Source: an uncultured Collinsella sp. (GTDB lineage: Bacteria > Actinomycetota > Coriobacteriia > Coriobacteriales > Coriobacteriaceae). From it: DNA of 11,759 bases. Under the pieces are notes generated by a model. It was not told the DNA's origin and did not search any database. It saw only the letters and a program-made list of their open reading frames with translations. The DNA is taken from NCBI GenBank assembly GCA_900551655.1, contig URWM01000026.1, positions 1 through 11,759 of the forward strand, given 5' to 3'. The translations under genes were made by a program, and so were the position numbers. Shown in pieces: positions 236 to 11,759 of the stretch. Numbering within the stretch: the stretch's first letter is position 1; each line of letters starts with the position of its first letter.

Positions 236-1174
236 TTATGCCGAGGCCTTGGCCTTGCGGCGCTTGCGGACCGCGTGGATCACGATGTCCAGCAGCAACA
301 GCACAATGGCTACGACCACGATGAGCACGGCGAACTCGCGCTTGCCCCAGTGGCGGCCGGCCAGCGACTTTTGCTCGTCGACATCCTTCTTGCTGTACTT
401 GGTGCGCACGCAATGCACCAGCAGGCGATGGTCGTTCACGCCGTAGGGCGTGCAGGTGACGAGCGTCACCTTGTCGGCGCCGGGCTCGATGGTTAGCGAC
501 TCCATCTCCTCGGGCAGCACCACCTCGGAGTCCACCATCTTGTAGGCGAGCGTCTTGTTCATGGTGTGCAGCAGCACCAGGTCGCCGGGCTCCAGCGAGT
601 GGATGTCGTCGAACATACTCAGGTTGCGCATGCCCGAATGCGCGGTGAGCACGCAATGCGTCGAGGTGCCGCCCACCGGCAGGCTCGTGCCCTCCAGGTG
701 GCCGACGCCCGCCATAAGGACTTCTTCGCTCGTGCCGTGGTAGATGGGCATGCTCACGTCGATGGAGGGAATCTCGACCCAGCTCATCATGGGGTCGCGG
801 TCAAAGATGAGCTGCTGGGCGTAGGGCTCGATCTGGTCGGCGGGGAGCTCGGTGGCCTCGCCGGCAAGCTGCTCGTTATAGGAGCGCGCCTGGAGCAGGA
901 TGCGCTCGCGCTCCTCGGCAGACAGCGCGTCCACGGTGCTGGACACCGTGCTGATCTGGTTGAACACGCCCGAGGCCTCGAGCCGGTCCAAGATCCACGG
1001 CCAGGTCATAAGGCCCACGCCAATAAGGATGATGACGATGGTGATGAGCCGATCGGCCCAGCGCGGCAGTCGCTTGCGACGGCGCTTGGGCTTTGGTTGA
1101 GGTTTGGGCTGAGGGCTTGAGTCACCGTTGGCCGCAGCGTTATTGCTCTTCATATGTTTGGCGCCCTGCACCAT
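236..1174 (-). CDS. Class C (pilin-polymerising) sortase
   Basis: This membrane transpeptidase cleaves LPxTG-type signals of pilins and joins them to a lysine of the next subunit outside the cell. The 312-residue protein has a basic, proline-rich cytoplasmic start, a membrane helix at about 43-62, the sortase barrel at about 131-258 and a second helix at about 281-301 followed by a basic tail; two helices are typical of class C. The catalytic His179 lies in TAHSG, Cys241 in TLVTCTP and Arg250 in the following HRLLVHC. The usual DP-aromatic lid motif before the barrel is not obvious; the segment at 105-128 looks degenerate. The ATG at 1174 is chosen because AAGGAG lies 9 bases upstream (1184-1189); the internal ATG at 1153 has no good site. 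Pilin genes lie upstream on the same strand but beyond a terminator, so it is probably transcribed separately. Confidence 0.93.
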   Translation of the reverse strand: MVQGAKHMKSNNAAANGDSSPQPKPQPKPKRRRKRLPRWADRLITIVIILIGVGLMTWPWILDRLEASGVFNQISTVSSTVDALSAEERERILLQARSYNEQLAGEATELPADQIEPYAQQLIFDRDPMMSWVEIPSIDVSMPIYHGTSEEVLMAGVGHLEGTSLPVGGTSTHCVLTAHSGMRNLSMFDDIHSLEPGDLVLLHTMNKTLAYKMVDSEVVLPEEMESLTIEPGADKVTLVTCTPYGVNDHRLLVHCVRTKYSKKDVDEQKSLAGRHWGKREFAVLIVVVAIVLLLLDIVIHAVRKRRKAKASA

Positions 1175-1893: not shown

Positions 1894-3705
1894 TTACTCC
1901 TGCTCGGACTCCTCAGCCTGCTTACGGCTGCGGATGAGGTGCGCCACGCCGATGACGAGCACCGCGCCACCAGCGATCCAAGTGAAGGTCACGCCGTTAA
2001 GACCGGTGAGGGGAAGGCCAGAGCCCTTCTTGTTCTGAATGGTGACGGGGATCTTGGTCGAATCGACGCTCCCGTTCGTCTTTTCCGAATCGACCATATT
2101 GGAGGTATCGGAAACAGTAAGCGCCGTCAGTTTGCCAGCAGTATCGTAGGTCGGCTTCACCGTAATCTGGAAGGGGGCGATGGTGTTGTAGCCCGAAGGA
2201 GTGGTCGTCTCGCTAATCTCGTACGTACCCGCAACGAGACCAGGGATAAAGACCTTATTATTAGTCTCAGTCTTAAACTCCCCGGCTTTGTTTACTTCAG
2301 TGGTGAGTCCACCATCCGCAGTCAGCCATTGACCGCCATTGGCAATTTCCTTGTCTCCTTCCTTGATCATTTTGACCTTAAAACCCGCAATGAGCTTCGC
2401 GTTAGCGTTGCTCGGGTCAGCGTCGGTCTTAGTGACATCAAGACCAAAGACGTAGTCAGCAACCTTATCCGGCTCAGAAGTGCCCTTATCGCCAGTCATG
2501 GGGTTGTTGGAATAGACAAGCTTGACCTCATTGGTGGCACCTTCGGCTTTGTATTCAACATCGCTGGTGAGCTTGGACTTATAGGTCACGACCACCGTAG
2601 AAGCGGCATCGACGCTAATCAGGTTTCCCTTAGTATCCTGAGCCGCCTTAAGGTTCTCGAAAGAAACCTTAAGGAGCTCGGTTCCAATGGACGCACCAGG
2701 AGTCACGGTCGCCTGATAGCCGGATTTGACCTCAGTCTTATTATTGTTGTTGACAATATAGACATGCAGGTCCTTCGGTGCGCCACCGGATTCCGTCACA
2801 ACCTTAAGGCCCTTGCTCAGCGTATCTTGGAATTCATAGTAATACGTATCGTACGAGGCAATATTATCTGCAACGCTACCGGTCAGCCTGTAGTCAATTT
2901 CCTGTCCGATCCAAGCATCGCCGCGGTTCTTCCAGTTGCTCTCTTCAGCAGCGGCATCCTTACCTGCAGTGTCGTCGAGAATCTTTTTGTCGACCCTGGG
3001 GATGCTGGTCTTCTCGGTAACGGTCACGGCCTCGCCGCCAACGATGGCAAAGATCGGAGAGGTGCCAGTTTTCGGCTTGGTCGTATCCGTAAGGCCGTCA
3101 GACACGAAGAGATAATAGCCATCACCGTAAAGGCCATCGGCAGTAGTATTCGGGCGCGTCCACGGGGTATCTGCCGTAGGGGTTCCCGCAGCGGTCTCCG
3201 CCTCAACACCTTGCTTCTTGCCTGAAACCGCAGCCGCAATTTCATAAAGCACATCGCCAGGAGCAACACGCGTACCGTCACTGCTGGTTGCAGCGCTGGA
3301 ATTACCGTTCACATTTTCAGAAAGCCATTCGGCAACAACTTGAGCAGTGGCTTTATCGTCGAGCTCCTTGGCAGAATTGCTCGTTACAATCTTTGTGTAC
3401 TCGTCAGAACCCTTAATGGCGGTAATCACCTTGGAGCCGATAGCATCATTTGCCCACTCAATATCGGAAGCAACTTTGCCATTGCCTTTCTCGTCAACGA
3501 CTTTTGCCTTGAAGATCTGATAGGCCTTGAACGTATTGCCTTGGTTATCCTCGGCAACCTTTTTGATGGTGATGCTGTTGGTCGAAGCCGTCACCGAATC
3601 ATCAGCAAACGCCATGGTCACCGGCGCCATAACGCCACCGAAGCTCAACGCTGCTGTGAGGCCGGCCGTTACTGCCAGGCGGGCGATGTTCTTGCTCATA
3701 CTCAT
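1894..3705 (-). CDS. Major (shaft) pilin, LPLTG-anchored, isopeptide-forming
   Basis: A 603-residue secreted fimbrial subunit expected to be polymerised by the class C sortase. A signal peptide ends near AFA-DD (34/35). An N-terminal domain (about 40-230) leads to IPRVDKK (235-241), equivalent to the pilin motif, whose lysine receives the next subunit. A middle domain ends with NEVKLVYSNNP. A CnaB/SpaA-type domain (about 420-560) shows the isopeptide triad: Lys426 in DVTKTD, Glu499 in the E-box YEISE...PSGY, and Asn558 in IQNKK. The end is LPLTG (564-568), a membrane helix and RSRK. The ATG at 3705 has GAGGA 7 bases upstream; earlier in-frame ATGs up to 3810 lack a ribosome site and would bury the signal peptide. 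It is the last pilin before the terminator and a paralogue of the 554-residue pilin upstream. The shaft role is inferred from size and motifs. Confidence 0.92.
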   Translation of the reverse strand: MSMSKNIARLAVTAGLTAALSFGGVMAPVTMAFADDSVTASTNSITIKKVAEDNQGNTFKAYQIFKAKVVDEKGNGKVASDIEWANDAIGSKVITAIKGSDEYTKIVTSNSAKELDDKATAQVVAEWLSENVNGNSSAATSSDGTRVAPGDVLYEIAAAVSGKKQGVEAETAAGTPTADTPWTRPNTTADGLYGDGYYLFVSDGLTDTTKPKTGTSPIFAIVGGEAVTVTEKTSIPRVDKKILDDTAGKDAAAEESNWKNRGDAWIGQEIDYRLTGSVADNIASYDTYYYEFQDTLSKGLKVVTESGGAPKDLHVYIVNNNNKTEVKSGYQATVTPGASIGTELLKVSFENLKAAQDTKGNLISVDAASTVVVTYKSKLTSDVEYKAEGATNEVKLVYSNNPMTGDKGTSEPDKVADYVFGLDVTKTDADPSNANAKLIAGFKVKMIKEGDKEIANGGQWLTADGGLTTEVNKAGEFKTETNNKVFIPGLVAGTYEISETTTPSGYNTIAPFQITVKPTYDTAGKLTALTVSDTSNMVDSEKTNGSVDSTKIPVTIQNKKGSGLPLTGLNGVTFTWIAGGAVLVIGVAHLIRSRKQAEESEQE

Positions 3706-3788
3706 CTTCTTTTCCTCTGCTTTCTGCTTGAAATCCATTTGATCTAAAACCATCTGTCTGTGTCTAAGCATTTGCTTGGTTATGTCTC

Positions 3789-3807
3789 GCCCCGCTCTCT
3801 GTGGGGC
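3789..3807 (-). other. Small intercistronic hairpin between pilin genes
   Basis: GCCCC (3789-3793) pairs with GGGGC (3803-3807) around a 9-base loop, just after the stop of the ancillary pilin. No T-run follows on the minus strand, so it is not a clear terminator. It might stabilise or mark a processing point that lets the major pilin message accumulate separately. No good promoter is seen in the 108 bases between the two genes. Confidence 0.3.
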
Positions 3808-3813
3808 CATTGG

Positions 3814-5478
3814 CTACTCTGCATGGTTGCCGCCTCCCCGCTTGATCAGGAGCGCGACCACGAGGATTGCGGCTCCGGCGACCGCTGCGGCGGCCGCGGC
3901 GTACATTGCCATATCGCCTGTCGAGGGTATAAAGCCTCCGGTGATAGTGCTAGGGGGCGTGCCGGTGGGCGTGTTGATGAGCGACGCCTCCAGGCTGCCC
4001 GTCGACCCGTCCGCGCTGTCGGCGCGCAGGGGCGACTCGGCCGTGATGGCGAGCTTGGGCTTGGCGGCGGCCACCTGGTCGACGTCCAGGCCCTCGGCCT
4101 TGACCGTCACGGAGCGCGTGCCCTCAAAGGCGGTGTAGCCCTTGGGCGCCTTGAGCTCGCGGACCTCCAGCTTGCCCGAGTCCACGCCCGAGACGGCCAC
4201 GCGGCCGTCCTCGCCCGTGGTGACGGTGGCCTTGCCCTCCGCATCCCACGTGCCGTCGGCCGCTAGCGAGCGGCCGCGATCGTCGGTGATACTCAGGACC
4301 GCCCCAGCAAGCGGCTTGTCGCCGTCGCTGCCGCGCTTGGTGAGCGCGAGATCCCAGGTGTAGGCCGTCGCGTCATCGCTCGGCGTGCGGGTGAAGCCGG
4401 CGTCGCCGGACTGGTCGGCGAAGGGAGAGCGCGGGTAGCGCAGGTAGACCTCGTTGGGGTTGCCCTTCGCGATGCCGTGGTTGCATGCGCTGTTGAGCGG
4501 CGCGTTGTACACGGCGACCACGCGGGCGCCCGCGGTGAAGGCGTCGGCCCCGCCGAGCGCGGCGATCAGGTCGCCGGTGCGCACGGTGAAGGAGTTCCCC
4601 TCGGCCGAGACCCTGCACTGGGCCGTGATGTCGGTCCAGCCCTTGGCGGGGTCAGCGTCGACGCGGCCGTCCTTGCCGGCCGAGACGGCGTCGAAGCCGC
4701 CGTCCGCGGCCGCCGCCACGTACACATGCATGCTCGCGGCGACCCTGGAGGGGTCGAGCCCCGCGCTCATGGTGTCGACGAGCTGCACCGTGTAGGCGTC
4801 GTAGGCGGTGAGGCCCGCCGGGACCGTGGCCGAGAGGCGCCAGTACAGGTCGTCGGCGACCGTGGCGTCGGCGGCCTTCTGCCAGGCGGCGGTGCTGTCC
4901 TCCAGCACGTGCTTGGCCACCTTGGGCGTCGCGGCCTTGGGCTTGACGGTGACGGCGTTGCCTCCCACCAGGGCCATGATCGGCGCGGTGCCTGCCTCGC
5001 CCTGGGCGATGGCGTCGTCGTCGGCGACGATGAGCCAATAGCCGCAGGGCAGCTCGGCCGTCGTGCCCGCGTTAAGGGCCACGAACTCGGCGCCAGAGCT
5101 CTGGAGGGAACGAACGAGCTGTGCGCTCAGCGCGCTCGTAAGGTGGGAATCGGTGTTGAGCCACTCGGCAGCTTCCTGCGCGGTGGTCTGGGAATTGGGC
5201 ATGCCAGCGCTGTGCAGCACAGGCAGCGCGGCGTCGCGCACGACGTCGCTTGCCCAGGCGAGGTCGGTGGCGATCTTGGCGTCGTTGTCACCGTCGACGA
5301 CATTGGCGCTAAAGATCTGGTAGGCGTTGTAGCTGCTCGCCACGGTGCCGCTCACCGTGATGGAACCGGTCGAGGTCGGCGCGGCCTGCGCGGATGCGGG
5401 GAACACAACCGCGCAGGTGCCGATCAGGAGGGCAAGCAGCGCAAACAAGATCGGGAAGGAGCAAACTTTCTTATTCAC
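3814..5478 (-). CDS. Ancillary or basal pilin, IPSTG-anchored
   Basis: A 554-residue secreted pilin, initiating at GTG. The signal peptide runs to about 32 (SAQAA). The N-terminal domain is related to that of the major pilin (shared NAYQIF...A.VVD, EAAEWL, and GTAPIMALVGGNAVTV). TPKVAKHVLED (184-194) matches the pilin-motif position. NPNEVYLRYP (340-349) parallels NEVKLVYSNNP of the major pilin. A C-terminal CnaB domain (about 375-503) has Lys381, Glu441 in the E-box LEVRELKAPKGY and Asn502. The sorting signal is the variant IPSTG (517-521), then an alanine-rich helix and KR. The start was chosen for AAGGGAGGTGA (5484-5494) 5 bases before it; the frame's ATG at 5559 would put a long basic stretch before the signal peptide. 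It overlaps the adhesin gene by 8 bases. Its third codon positions are almost all G or C, unlike its neighbours. Basal role is inferred. Confidence 0.9.
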   Translation of the reverse strand: MNKKVCSFPILFALLALLIGTCAVVFPASAQAAPTSTGSITVSGTVASSYNAYQIFSANVVDGDNDAKIATDLAWASDVVRDAALPVLHSAGMPNSQTTAQEAAEWLNTDSHLTSALSAQLVRSLQSSGAEFVALNAGTTAELPCGYWLIVADDDAIAQGEAGTAPIMALVGGNAVTVKPKAATPKVAKHVLEDSTAAWQKAADATVADDLYWRLSATVPAGLTAYDAYTVQLVDTMSAGLDPSRVAASMHVYVAAAADGGFDAVSAGKDGRVDADPAKGWTDITAQCRVSAEGNSFTVRTGDLIAALGGADAFTAGARVVAVYNAPLNSACNHGIAKGNPNEVYLRYPRSPFADQSGDAGFTRTPSDDATAYTWDLALTKRGSDGDKPLAGAVLSITDDRGRSLAADGTWDAEGKATVTTGEDGRVAVSGVDSGKLEVRELKAPKGYTAFEGTRSVTVKAEGLDVDQVAAAKPKLAITAESPLRADSADGSTGSLEASLINTPTGTPPSTITGGFIPSTGDMAMYAAAAAAVAGAAILVVALLIKRGGGNHAE

Positions 5479-8400
5479 GACGCTCACCTCCCTTCGCGCT
5501 CGCCTTGCGACGAACGTGCATCCAGGCCGCAGCGACGCAAAGCATCGCCGCGCCGGCAAGGTACGTCAGAGTGACGCCCGACATACCAGAAAGGGGCAAA
5601 GAGGTGGAGTAGGTGTTGGTGAAGGTGGGGCCGCGCTCCTCGGGATTCGCACTGTCGAAGTTGACGGGGACCTGTTCCTTTTCGGCAATATCCTCGCCGT
5701 CGACGTCCTTAATCTTGGTGTAGGTTACTTCCGTGGGCTCAATTTTTCCGCCTTTTTGGTCCGTCATCGTGACATCAAATCGATAGACCGACTTGTCGTA
5801 CTTGTAGTTCGTAAACGGCGTGGTCGGCTGCTGTTCGCGAACGTAATAAGTAAAGGTTTTGCTTGCACCGCGACCCGTTGGGTCAGTCTCGAGTTTGTCG
5901 AGTTGTTCGAGTTTGTACTCAATCGGGTCGAAGCCCAGGGTCAGAGGATTGTCGCCACCAGCAGTGGTGGACTTGCTGCTAACGATAGTCTTAAACTCGC
6001 TGTCAGTTGCAAGTTGAAGCGTAAACTCCTTCATCTCGCCACCCTCAACGACCTTAGTCGCCTTGGGAGTCCAAGAGCCGCTGGAGGTGTACGGAGCGTA
6101 CGTGTTGGTGAAGGTCTTTGGTCCATCGGGGTTGGCAATCGAATAATAGCCGTCAGCATCAGGATCTACTGGCACAGTCTCCGGAGAGTTAGCTGAACTC
6201 CCGGGATTCTTAGTCACGTCCACACGATCAATCGTGAAGTTATAGATATTAAGATTTTTAGTCGCACTCGAATCATTCTTTATCGGAACAGACATAAGTA
6301 CAGTCTTGTTGTATTTGACTGTCACGTTAATCTCGTATACAGCATGATCGTAATCAATACCGGGAATATTGCCCGCATTTTCGACCAAATAGTATGAGTA
6401 TGTAATTTTGCCAGTATCACTTAAGGGCTTCTTGCTGAAGTCACCGAGCTGCTTGCTAAGGTCATTGCTAAGGTCAAAGGCGATGTTGCCGTCAGCGTTA
6501 TTCGGGGCAGATTCGACAAACTCGCAGCCACCATTGTCGAATACATTATTCTTCCAAGAAGGCGCTTTCGCAGTATCCGGGTCCTTGCGATAAACCGTAA
6601 ACTTGAACTCCCCATCTCCGAGCGTACGGCCGTCCAACTTCTTGGTTGCCTTCAACTTAAGGCTTGGATAGACGTACGTATCCGCAGGCACGCCTAGGTA
6701 CAAGTCGCCATTCGACATGATGCCGCCGCCATGGTCCCAGGAATAGTTGCCCGTGATGAAAGTTGTCGCTTCATTCTGCGCATCATTCTGCGCATTAATC
6801 GCCGCCTCATCCCCGGCCTTAACACCCGACATAACACCCGAGGTCAGGCCGATGCTATTATCTACCCCAACAGCACCGTTGGCGGGAATGGTGATAGCTT
6901 TTTTAAGTTCGATGCTTCCCGAGTACCGGGCGTCTCCACCGCCAAGCATCTTACCAGTCACAACTGCAATCGGCTTATTGTTATCATGCGCTGCGAGGAA
7001 GAAATCGGCATGACCGCTATCGCGAAACACCTTCGATCTGTATGCCTCTTTATCTTGATTCTTGCCACTACCACCACCTGAAAGATGGGGTATATCTTCA
7101 TTGCCGGAATTGTCATCTTTGTTGTAAGGATTACTGTTATGGTCTTCGTTATCATACTCAGCGCCGGCAGACGAATTGCCAAAGATTGCCGTGCCCTCAG
7201 TGTTCGTTACCAACGTCTTGCCCGTAGGGCAGACTGCAACGCCGCCGCCGTAGCCGCCAGCTCTATTGGCGCTAATGTACGAGTTGTACACAAAGAGCCT
7301 GCCAGCATTAGATGCGGTATTCGAATCGCCCTGAACGAAGACGCCGCCTCCGCCCCAGTCAAAGCGAGACATGCAGTGGTTATTAGTGATGTAGACTGGG
7401 CTATCTTTTGACGCTCCACTTATCATCGCGTCAACCTTCTGGCCCACTCGGATGCCGGCACCTTCAGATCGGTAGCTCACGTTAGAGGCAATAATTCCTC
7501 CCGTAATGTTGAGCCATGCCATATCCTTGCGAGAACCGCCTCGCCATTGATCGGTAACGTAAACGCCGCCACCGGCTTCTTCAGAATAATTGCCAGTAAT
7601 CTGGCCACCGGAAATGATGACATGGGCGCCTTCTTTGGCAGCAAGCCCAGCGCCGCCATGACAACCCCAGCCATCCTCACCGCAGAATTTGGCATAGCGA
7701 TTGTTCGTAATGTAACCGCCGGAAACAGTAACGCTGCCGCCATATTCGGCCATGATGCCGCCACCAAATCCGTTATATTCAAGCGTGCTATTACCGGAGA
7801 TTACGCCACCGGCCACTGTGACTGCAGACCCCTTGGCATATACACCGCCGCCACTAGGAGCGCGGTTGCCGGCAATTACGCCGTTAGAAATGCTAAGAGT
7901 CGAATTGTCGACAGATATTCCTGCGCCGGCACCATTGTTCGGACAAAAACCTCCACAAACGTAACCACCGTTCATATTGACGGTCGAGCGACTCTCCGCG
8001 TACACCAGGCTTCGGACCTTGCAGTCTTTCTGTTGTGTGAGCACGCCGCTCTCAAGACTGAAATGACCGCCGTCCTTGATGTTGATGAGCTTCAGTCCTT
8101 CAGAGCCACCGCATGCCACGATGGCGCCCTTATCTTTATTATAGCCTTCGCCTTTGATATCAATACCATGCTCTACCAGCGACTCGGTTGTGCCCGTTCC
8201 TTCTGGGGACGATTCGGTCACATAGTAGGAAAGGTAAGTCGGAATGCCATCGTTGTCGTAAGACAGTGTGGCTTCCTTGCCATAATTGGCTGGAGTTAAA
8301 TTCTGTCCCTGATCATTTAGCGGCTGGCCGTCGCCGACCTGTTCACTCACTTCCACAGAATCCATAATTGTAAGTGTCGCGCCACCGGTGATATTGAACA

Positions 8401-8965
8401 AAGGCTGATCTTGACTCGTATGCTTAATCTTGCAGCCGTTTAGGTCCAGTGTGATATTACTGACGCTATTATTGAGCTGAATTGTCTCGCTGGTATCAAT
8501 ATCATTCATAAGCTTGAAGTTAGCAACACCGCTTGCATTCGCCAGGTCTTTCAAGTCGTCAGCTGTTCGTATTTCAGTGAATGCCGTTTTAGTCTGCCCG
8601 CCTTCCGGCATTACGGCATTGCCATCCGACAGCTCGCCATCTTCGGCCTGCAGCTTACCTTCAGGCTGACCCTGCTCAACACCATTTGAAGGGTCGGATT
8701 CGTCACCCTCGGTCTCGCCGCTATTCAGCTTTTCGGTATCCCCGTTGTTGGTGTTTTCTACATCAGTAGACTCACTTGAGGAACCCCCCCCCATCACAGT
8801 TTCCTCGGCAGAAACCGTATGGACATCGTTGGCAATGGCCTGCGAGATCGGGGGCATGACGAGCGACAGTACCAGGCTCAAAACGGATGCTCCGCACAAA
8901 ACGCCTGCCAGTACACGGCGCGTCGCTTTATTACTCTGCTTAGATTTGTCCGAATTCGCTTTCAT
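5471..8965 (-). CDS. Pilus tip adhesin: beta-helix head, two Spy0128-like domains, LPLSG
   Basis: A 1164-residue surface protein. A signal peptide (about 15-46) is followed by an acidic, Ser/Gly/Asn-rich linker (about 52-125) coded in part by a run of nine G. From about 130 to 760 is a right-handed parallel beta-helix, with repeated turns such as VAGGVISGN (384-392), VSGGYITNN (413-421), ISGGQITGN (451-459) and ITGGIIASN (487-495), each followed by a GGG-rich loop. Two Spy0128/FctA-like stalk domains follow. The first (about 766-956) has Lys775/776, Glu862 in YYLVEN and Asn954 in FTNTY. The second (about 964-1119) has Lys968/971, Glu1044 in YYVREQ and Asn1117 in FTNTY. The end is LPLSG (1123-1127), a helix and a basic tail. 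The ATG has GGAGGAG 6 bases upstream (8972-8978). It is first in the operon, as is common for tip adhesins. Ligand unknown; beta-helix heads often bind or cut glycans, but no catalytic residues are claimed. Confidence 0.88.
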   Translation of the reverse strand: MKANSDKSKQSNKATRRVLAGVLCGASVLSLVLSLVMPPISQAIANDVHTVSAEETVMGGGSSSESTDVENTNNGDTEKLNSGETEGDESDPSNGVEQGQPEGKLQAEDGELSDGNAVMPEGGQTKTAFTEIRTADDLKDLANASGVANFKLMNDIDTSETIQLNNSVSNITLDLNGCKIKHTSQDQPLFNITGGATLTIMDSVEVSEQVGDGQPLNDQGQNLTPANYGKEATLSYDNDGIPTYLSYYVTESSPEGTGTTESLVEHGIDIKGEGYNKDKGAIVACGGSEGLKLINIKDGGHFSLESGVLTQQKDCKVRSLVYAESRSTVNMNGGYVCGGFCPNNGAGAGISVDNSTLSISNGVIAGNRAPSGGGVYAKGSAVTVAGGVISGNSTLEYNGFGGGIMAEYGGSVTVSGGYITNNRYAKFCGEDGWGCHGGAGLAAKEGAHVIISGGQITGNYSEEAGGGVYVTDQWRGGSRKDMAWLNITGGIIASNVSYRSEGAGIRVGQKVDAMISGASKDSPVYITNNHCMSRFDWGGGGVFVQGDSNTASNAGRLFVYNSYISANRAGGYGGGVAVCPTGKTLVTNTEGTAIFGNSSAGAEYDNEDHNSNPYNKDDNSGNEDIPHLSGGGSGKNQDKEAYRSKVFRDSGHADFFLAAHDNNKPIAVVTGKMLGGGDARYSGSIELKKAITIPANGAVGVDNSIGLTSGVMSGVKAGDEAAINAQNDAQNEATTFITGNYSWDHGGGIMSNGDLYLGVPADTYVYPSLKLKATKKLDGRTLGDGEFKFTVYRKDPDTAKAPSWKNNVFDNGGCEFVESAPNNADGNIAFDLSNDLSKQLGDFSKKPLSDTGKITYSYYLVENAGNIPGIDYDHAVYEINVTVKYNKTVLMSVPIKNDSSATKNLNIYNFTIDRVDVTKNPGSSANSPETVPVDPDADGYYSIANPDGPKTFTNTYAPYTSSGSWTPKATKVVEGGEMKEFTLQLATDSEFKTIVSSKSTTAGGDNPLTLGFDPIEYKLEQLDKLETDPTGRGASKTFTYYVREQQPTTPFTNYKYDKSVYRFDVTMTDQKGGKIEPTEVTYTKIKDVDGEDIAEKEQVPVNFDSANPEERGPTFTNTYSTSLPLSGMSGVTLTYLAGAAMLCVAAAWMHVRRKASAKGGERRE
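5484..5494 (-). promoter_or_regulatory. Shine-Dalgarno site inside the adhesin gene that sets a GTG start
   Basis: AAGGGAGGTGA on the minus strand lies within the last codons of the adhesin gene, 5 bases before the GTG at 5478. Adhesin stop and pilin start share GTGAATAA (5471-5478). This layout favours translational coupling, with ribosomes finishing the adhesin restarting on the pilin. Confidence 0.85.
8784..8792 (-). repeat. Nine-G homopolymer in the adhesin coding region
   Basis: The coding strand has nine G in a row, starting with the last base of codon 58 (ATG) and running through codons for Gly59-Gly61, just after the signal peptide. In the present length the gene is in frame. With ten G, a TGA (8772-8774) stops translation after seven codons. 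With eight G, a TAG (8758-8760) stops it after eleven. The tract is long enough to be a plausible slipped-strand hotspot. Confidence 0.85.
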
Positions 8966-11711: not shown

Positions 11712-11759
11712 CTGTCTCTTATACACATCTCCGAGCCCACGAGACGTAGAGGAATCTCG
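11712..11759. other. Illumina Nextera adapter contamination
   Basis: The 19-bp transposon mosaic end CTGTCTCTTATACACATCT fills 11712-11730. CCGAGCCCACGAGAC (11731-11745) is the Nextera i7-side primer part. GTAGAGGA (11746-11753) equals the Nextera N712 index as I recall it, and ATCTCG (11754-11759) begins the P7 tail. These bases are synthetic and not from the organism. Genome sequence therefore ends at about 11711. Peptides read through here, such as MYKRQ and GSEMCIRDS, are known database artefacts. Confidence 0.97.

What the first reader, a model, noticed from the sequence alone, without database searches (positions are those of the whole stretch)
8758..8792. Poly-G9 tract predicts phase-variable ON/OFF switching of the tip adhesin
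Nine G lie right after the signal-peptide region of a large surface adhesin. The current length is in frame. I translated the alternatives: ten G give TGA at 8772-8774 after seven codons, eight G give TAG at 8758-8760 after eleven. Both alternative frames stop almost at once, which is the classic design of slipped-strand contingency genes. I know of no well-described case of this for coriobacterial pili.
Basis: partly seen in the sequence, partly recalled or inferred. Interest (0 to 1): 0.85.

Follow-up and report, generated by a model that had tools for sequence, protein, structure and literature searches.

The report
Poly-G ON/OFF switch in Collinsella pilus adhesin
A run of nine G near the start of a Collinsella gut-bacterium pilus gene very probably works as a slip-prone switch: some relatives carry eight or ten G, which cuts the protein off early while the rest of the gene stays intact, much as already described for bifidobacterial pili.

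Summary
The tract alone proves little (151 of 2000 simulated windows hold a G9/C9). Relatives decide. Of 43 genomes of the genus, 20 carry the conserved N-terminus: 7 have G9, 2 G8, 1 G10, 9 no tract, 1 is cut off. The three out-of-frame alleles keep uninterrupted frames of over 1000 codons behind the tract. In a large protein database, 55 of 120 listed short N-terminal relatives read into the frame that G8 (36), G10 (13) or G7 (6) predicts. A second surface gene, with a CAP domain, has the same design: G9 in 8, G10 in 2 of 12 genomes. Phase variation by slipped-strand mispairing is therefore very likely, though switching within one strain was not seen. The mechanism is published for sortase pili of Bifidobacterium (PMC9187656); this is a new member, in Collinsella. 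Unexpectedly, an IS110-family element that inserts into C-runs also lands in these tracts.

The parts
8784..8792 (-). G9 tract: third base of ATG58, GGG59, GGG60, first two bases of GGT61
8793..8965 (-). conserved 5' segment with a hydrophobic, signal-peptide-like stretch (GVLCGASVLSLVLSLVMPPISQAIA); matched in 20 of 43 genus genomes; no signal-peptide program was run
8772..8774 (-). TGA that ends the G10 and G7 readings
   Evidence: same ending seen in relative G010
8758..8760 (-). TAG that ends the G8 and G11 readings
   Evidence: same ending seen in relatives G019 and G036
5471..8965 (-). pilus adhesin gene, 1164 aa: disordered 1-126 (holds the tract), beta-rich body ~128-704, FctA/FctB-like pilin domain ~960-1126, LPLSG sorting signal near the C-terminus
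3814..5559 (-). minor pilin (SpaA, isopeptide-forming fimbrial domain); 5559 is the mechanical start and overlaps the adhesin, the true start is probably near 5478 (inferred)
1894..3810 (-). backbone pilin (GramPos_pilinBB, SpaA; LPLTG sorting signal)
236..1174 (-). class C (pilus-type) sortase

Best explanation
The G9 tract is a slipped-strand contingency switch in the first gene of a sortase-dependent pilus cluster of Collinsella. At G9 (also G6 or G12) the signal peptide, the adhesin body and the sorting signal form one frame: ON. Loss or gain of one G during replication puts a stop a few codons on, leaving a stub of 64-68 residues: OFF. A reverse slip restores the frame. The tract lies in a disordered linker, so a change of one glycine (G6/G12) should be harmless. 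Shown here: the frames and stops; G8-G10 variation among relatives at DNA level and G7/G8/G10-type products at protein level; uninterrupted frames behind OFF tracts. Inferred: replication slippage as the cause, reversibility within a clone, tip position, and reduced expression of the downstream pilin and sortase genes in OFF cells.
For: Tract lengths G9 in 7, G8 in 2, G10 in 1 of 20 genomes with the N-terminus. The G008 (G9) and G019 (G8) genes align over full length at 93% DNA identity. OFF alleles G019, G036 and G010 have 0 internal stops in 3096, 3186 and 3033 bases behind the tract; dN/dS 0.24-0.57 in the 5 pairs that include an OFF allele, 0.31-0.75 in the 5 pairs without one. Of 120 listed short relatives (160 found), 36 read into the G8, 13 the G10 and 6 the G7 frame, and 9 have other frameshifts at the tract (inferred from protein, not DNA). 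Separate CAP-domain gene: G9 in 8, G10 in 2 of 12 genomes, with the stop right behind the G10 tract. Cluster with a class C sortase. Tract inside a region of pLDDT under 50. Precedent in B. breve (PMC9187656, abstract and sections 12, 15, 20, 21 read).
Against: 9 of 20 genomes lack the tract. The genomes compared are single representatives of different species, not one strain, so reversibility is not shown. dN/dS mostly reflects time before the OFF slip, and the closest ON/OFF pair has a fairly high 0.57. Assembly errors in homopolymers are possible in single genomes; G007, G029 and G027 have 566, 989 and 270 overlapping G9 matches genome-wide, which looks like poly-G artefact. Composition alone gives a G9/C9 in 151 of 2000 simulated windows.
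Confidence: 0.88

Rival explanations
1. The OFF alleles are ordinary pseudogenes: homopolymer mutation hits the gene, which then decays; no switching.
For: Frameshift hot-spots arise wherever G-runs exist (general knowledge); 9 of 20 genomes live without the tract.
Against: All three OFF alleles in the held genomes have no second lesion in over 1000 codons; the same design recurs in a second gene; OFF types are numerous in the database.
Confidence: 0.05
2. The tract acts mainly by RNA polymerase or ribosome slippage, so that every cell makes some full-length protein whatever the DNA length.
For: Long G-runs can be slippery for polymerases and ribosomes (general knowledge); not tested here.
Against: DNA length itself varies among relatives; in B. 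breve the authors report a strong drop of transcription behind the stop (PMC9187656, section 15).
Confidence: 0.03
3. The tract is a neutral accident of a Gly-rich linker.
For: The linker is predicted disordered and 151 of 2000 simulated windows hold such a run.
Against: GGG is only 24 of 345 Gly codons here; the tract is present in 10 of 20 genomes, and in another gene at the same place behind the signal peptide.
Confidence: 0.04

Closest known systems
G-tract ON/OFF switch of sortase-dependent pili in Bifidobacterium breve (Penno et al. 2022, PMC9187656)
   Same: G-tract in the first gene of a sortase-pilus cluster, between the Sec signal and the body with the sorting signal; +/-1 G breaks the frame; lengths vary among strains (8-13 in their Table 1).
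   Different: Bifidobacterium, not Collinsella; in the UCC2003 reference the tracts are G11 and G10 and out of frame, here G9 in frame; slippage and pili were measured there, not here; homology of the tip proteins was not tested.
Homopolymer contingency genes in general, e.g. poly-G/C genes of Campylobacter (search listing); poly-A of Listeria inlA (PMC2831843, abstract read)
   Same: Hypermutable homopolymer at the 5' end of a surface-protein gene, truncated product when out of frame.
   Different: Host lineage, gene family and pilus context.
FctA/FctB (Spy0128-like) pilins of Gram-positive pili

Membership tests
Slipped-strand homopolymer contingency gene | Long homopolymer inside the coding frame near its 5' end | tested here: met
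Slipped-strand homopolymer contingency gene | +/-1 unit gives an early stop in both other frames | tested here: met
Slipped-strand homopolymer contingency gene | Tract length differs between related genomes while the rest of the gene stays intact | tested here: met
   10 of 20 genomes have the tract, lengths 8, 9, 10
Slipped-strand homopolymer contingency gene | Reversible mixture of lengths in one clonal population | not testable with these tools
   no reads held
Slipped-strand homopolymer contingency gene | Surface protein present or absent on cells according to length | not testable with these tools
   needs cells
G-tract sortase-pilus switch as in Bifidobacterium | Tract in the first gene of a cluster with pilins and a pilus sortase | tested here: met
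   co-transcription not tested
G-tract sortase-pilus switch as in Bifidobacterium | Tract separates the secretion signal from the body with the sorting signal | tested here: met
   by reading: hydrophobic N-terminus before the tract, LPLSG near the C-terminus; no signal-peptide program run
G-tract sortase-pilus switch as in Bifidobacterium | Common descent with the bifidobacterial tip pilins | not tested
   no bifidobacterial protein was compared
Sortase-pilus subunit | Pilin domain plus sorting signal, next to a class C sortase | tested here: met
Pilus tip adhesin | Position at the tip and binding to a ligand | not testable with these tools
   suggested only by gene order and by the separate N-terminal body

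The most novel reading that the evidence does not exclude
Collinsella keeps a genome-wide set of G-tract contingency genes (sortase-pilus adhesin, CAP-domain surface protein, and untested candidates in Flp-like pilin, other secreted proteins and BREX brxA). A bridge-RNA-guided IS110 element that recognises runs of C uses these very tracts as landing sites, adding a second, insertion-based OFF state to the slippage switch.
Probability: 0.45. Interest if true: 0.75.

Novelty: new member of a known kind. Interest (0 to 1): 0.6.

Why it matters
Collinsella is a common human gut genus (recalled). A pilus subunit that flips ON and OFF by single-base slippage would mean that one culture or metagenome-assembled genome shows only one state, and that an OFF allele may be annotated as a short hypothetical protein, as P0006 is. 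Tract length can be read directly from existing metagenome reads, so selection for adhesin ON or OFF in people becomes testable without culture. The IS110 observation suggests that phase-variable tracts are also targets for a transposon.

Full report
What is there. The minus strand of the window carries a sortase-pilus gene cluster: adhesin (8965-5471), minor pilin (5559-3814), backbone pilin (3810-1894) and a class C sortase (1174-236). Nine G lie at 8792-8784, codons 58-61 of the adhesin, just behind a signal-peptide-like stretch. G9 reads through 1164 codons; G10 and G7 stop at TGA 8774-8772; G8 and G11 stop at TAG 8760-8758; G6 and G12 stay open.

Chance. The run is the only G/C run of 6 or more in the window, but 151 of 2000 Markov windows of the same composition hold a G9 or C9. 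GGG is rare among Gly codons here (24 of 345). The nearest held genome, G001, has 8 distinct G>=9 runs, all on its 2.43-Mb contig, and G042 also has 8 (overlapping matches merged by me). Other genomes have more: raw overlapping counts range from 2 (G022) to 989 (G029), the very high ones (G029, G007 with 566, G027 with 270) probably assembly artefact. The window's own assembly is not held.

Relatives. The genus of G001 is Collinsella: six of its contigs have the same lengths as contigs titled Collinsella. Of 43 genomes, 20 hold the N-terminus. Tract: G9 in G001, G005, G007, G008, G018, G029, G042; G8 in G019, G036; G10 in G010; none in G003, G004, G011, G012, G024, G031, G037, G039, G043; G027 is cut off by a contig end. 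Two further named loci: L037 has G9, L034 has none. In the seven in-frame tractless alleles codon 58 is not ATG; they look locked ON. In G003 and G011 the 58-codon leader runs into MGCSK-stop, and a second frame with its own signal-like start (VKKFAA...) continues.

OFF alleles are not ruins. Behind the tract G019, G036 and G010 have 1032, 1062 and 1011 codons including the stop, with no internal stop, ending in the same LPLSG anchor. dN/dS: G008-G019 0.57, G010-G019 0.31, G010-G008 0.30, G036-G042 0.24, G036-G012 0.31; pairs without an OFF allele 0.31-0.75. These values mix ON and OFF time, so they show little beyond the absence of decay. The G008 (G9) and G019 (G8) genes align over 3321 columns at 93%.

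Protein database. A search with the G8 reading found 160 short relatives; of the 120 listed, 36 read into the G8 frame, 13 the G10 frame, 6 the G7 frame, 9 have other frameshifts at the tract, 7 the end of an IS110 element, 3 another insertion-like tail, 8 read MGCSK, 9 are in frame (fragments or later breaks) and 29 have no tract or other tails. Tract lengths here are inferred from protein. One G8 type is named to Collinsella sp. TF08-11AT (P0006). The full-length search scored 7969 hits; 117 of the 120 listed read MGGGS, a list biased to G9.

A second gene with the same design. A surface protein with a CAP domain (PF00188 in the G001 copy) has G9 just behind its signal-like N-terminus in G001, G008, G018, G029, G031, G039, G041 and G042; G10 and an immediate stop in G004 and G037, with frames of 1121-1122 aa after it; no tract in G011; an inserted element in G024. 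Of 63 short relatives, 14 end as GGVVL or similar (7 of them with an upstream frame change), 5 as G10, 2 as G7, 11 carry the IS110 end, 1 another tail, 30 are otherwise.

Mechanism. Slippage at the G-run during replication toggles the frame. In B. breve the authors saw pilus-like structures on strains placed in frame but not on the parent, a drop of transcription behind the stop, and the ON length about tenfold (bbr_0113) and twofold (bbr_1889) more frequent in mice than in culture (PMC9187656, sections 15 and 20). By analogy an OFF slip here may also lower the pilins and sortase; not tested.

Prior art. Searches for Collinsella with phase variation and pili, homopolymeric/slipped-strand/phase-variable (25 of 332 listed), sortase and pilus, phase-variable and homopolymeric listed nothing on this topic by title and abstract start. 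I opened two of the listed papers by passages: PMC8068183 names Collinsella only among antibody-coated bacteria, and PMC13011404 speaks of Collinsella as a co-occurring species and gene donor. The other papers were not opened. Only open-licence papers are held.

An unexpected visitor. In G024 an element with an IS110-family transposase (PF01548, PF02371) sits in the CAP-gene tract. Copies of 100% protein identity number 10 in G001 and 3 in G024. Of 19 stretches fetched, 16 show both ends: 15 lie in C-runs of 5-9 bases followed by T or G, always in one orientation, and one (L182) shows a tandem junction; two of the 15 (L176, L181) share flanks, so 14 are distinct; 2 stretches showed one end and 1 none by this pattern. 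Eleven more distant copies share the right end but sit at CCCAA[T/C]GACTA (8 of 11 exactly, 3 with one change). The left end folds with z -2.25 (4 of 200 shuffles as good); in its centroid CGUCUGCCCCU lies unpaired opposite CCGGGGGGUGUU, but in the minimum-energy fold these stretches pair with each other. A bridge RNA (PMC11208160, passages read) for a C-run would have such guides; that reading is a hypothesis.

Noticed in passing
L134:244-1401 (G024) and L169-L185: IS110-family element: 15 insertions with both ends readable lie in C-runs of 5-9 bases; one is in the CAP-gene tract, and its right end fits 7 of 120 adhesin and 11 of 63 CAP truncated products.
   Followed up: partly
L144-L147, L152, L153, L156, L158, L159, L167, L168: More distant IS110 copies with the same right end sit at CCCAA[T/C]GACTA (8 of 11 exactly) instead of C-runs: same donor end, different target.
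   Followed up: partly
L093, L100, L123-L133: CAP-domain surface protein with a G9 or G10 tract right behind its signal-like N-terminus in 10 of 12 genomes: a second ON/OFF gene.
   Followed up: yes
L091:1964 and L091:5836: G10 and G11 tracts 3.9 kb apart in G001, each just before Flp-like pilin sequence (G11 copy: GQSTVEYVLII; Pfam Flp_Fap below its cut-off).
   Followed up: no
L092, L098, L107: G10, G9, G9 at the start of a BrxA-like gene (BREX; PF08849 found on the L092 frame) in three genomes with near-identical flanks.
   Followed up: no
L094:1969: G9 inside a signal-peptide-like start (MAGGGLPSRA) of a 721-aa open frame in G001, no Pfam match.
   Followed up: no
L114, L115 (G003, G011): Adhesin leader ends MGCSK-stop and overlaps a second frame with its own signal-like start; also 8 of 120 database products.
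   Followed up: partly
window 11712-11730: CTGTCTCTTATACACATCT, which I recall as the Nextera transposase adapter: probably adapter left at the end of the assembly.
   Followed up: partly
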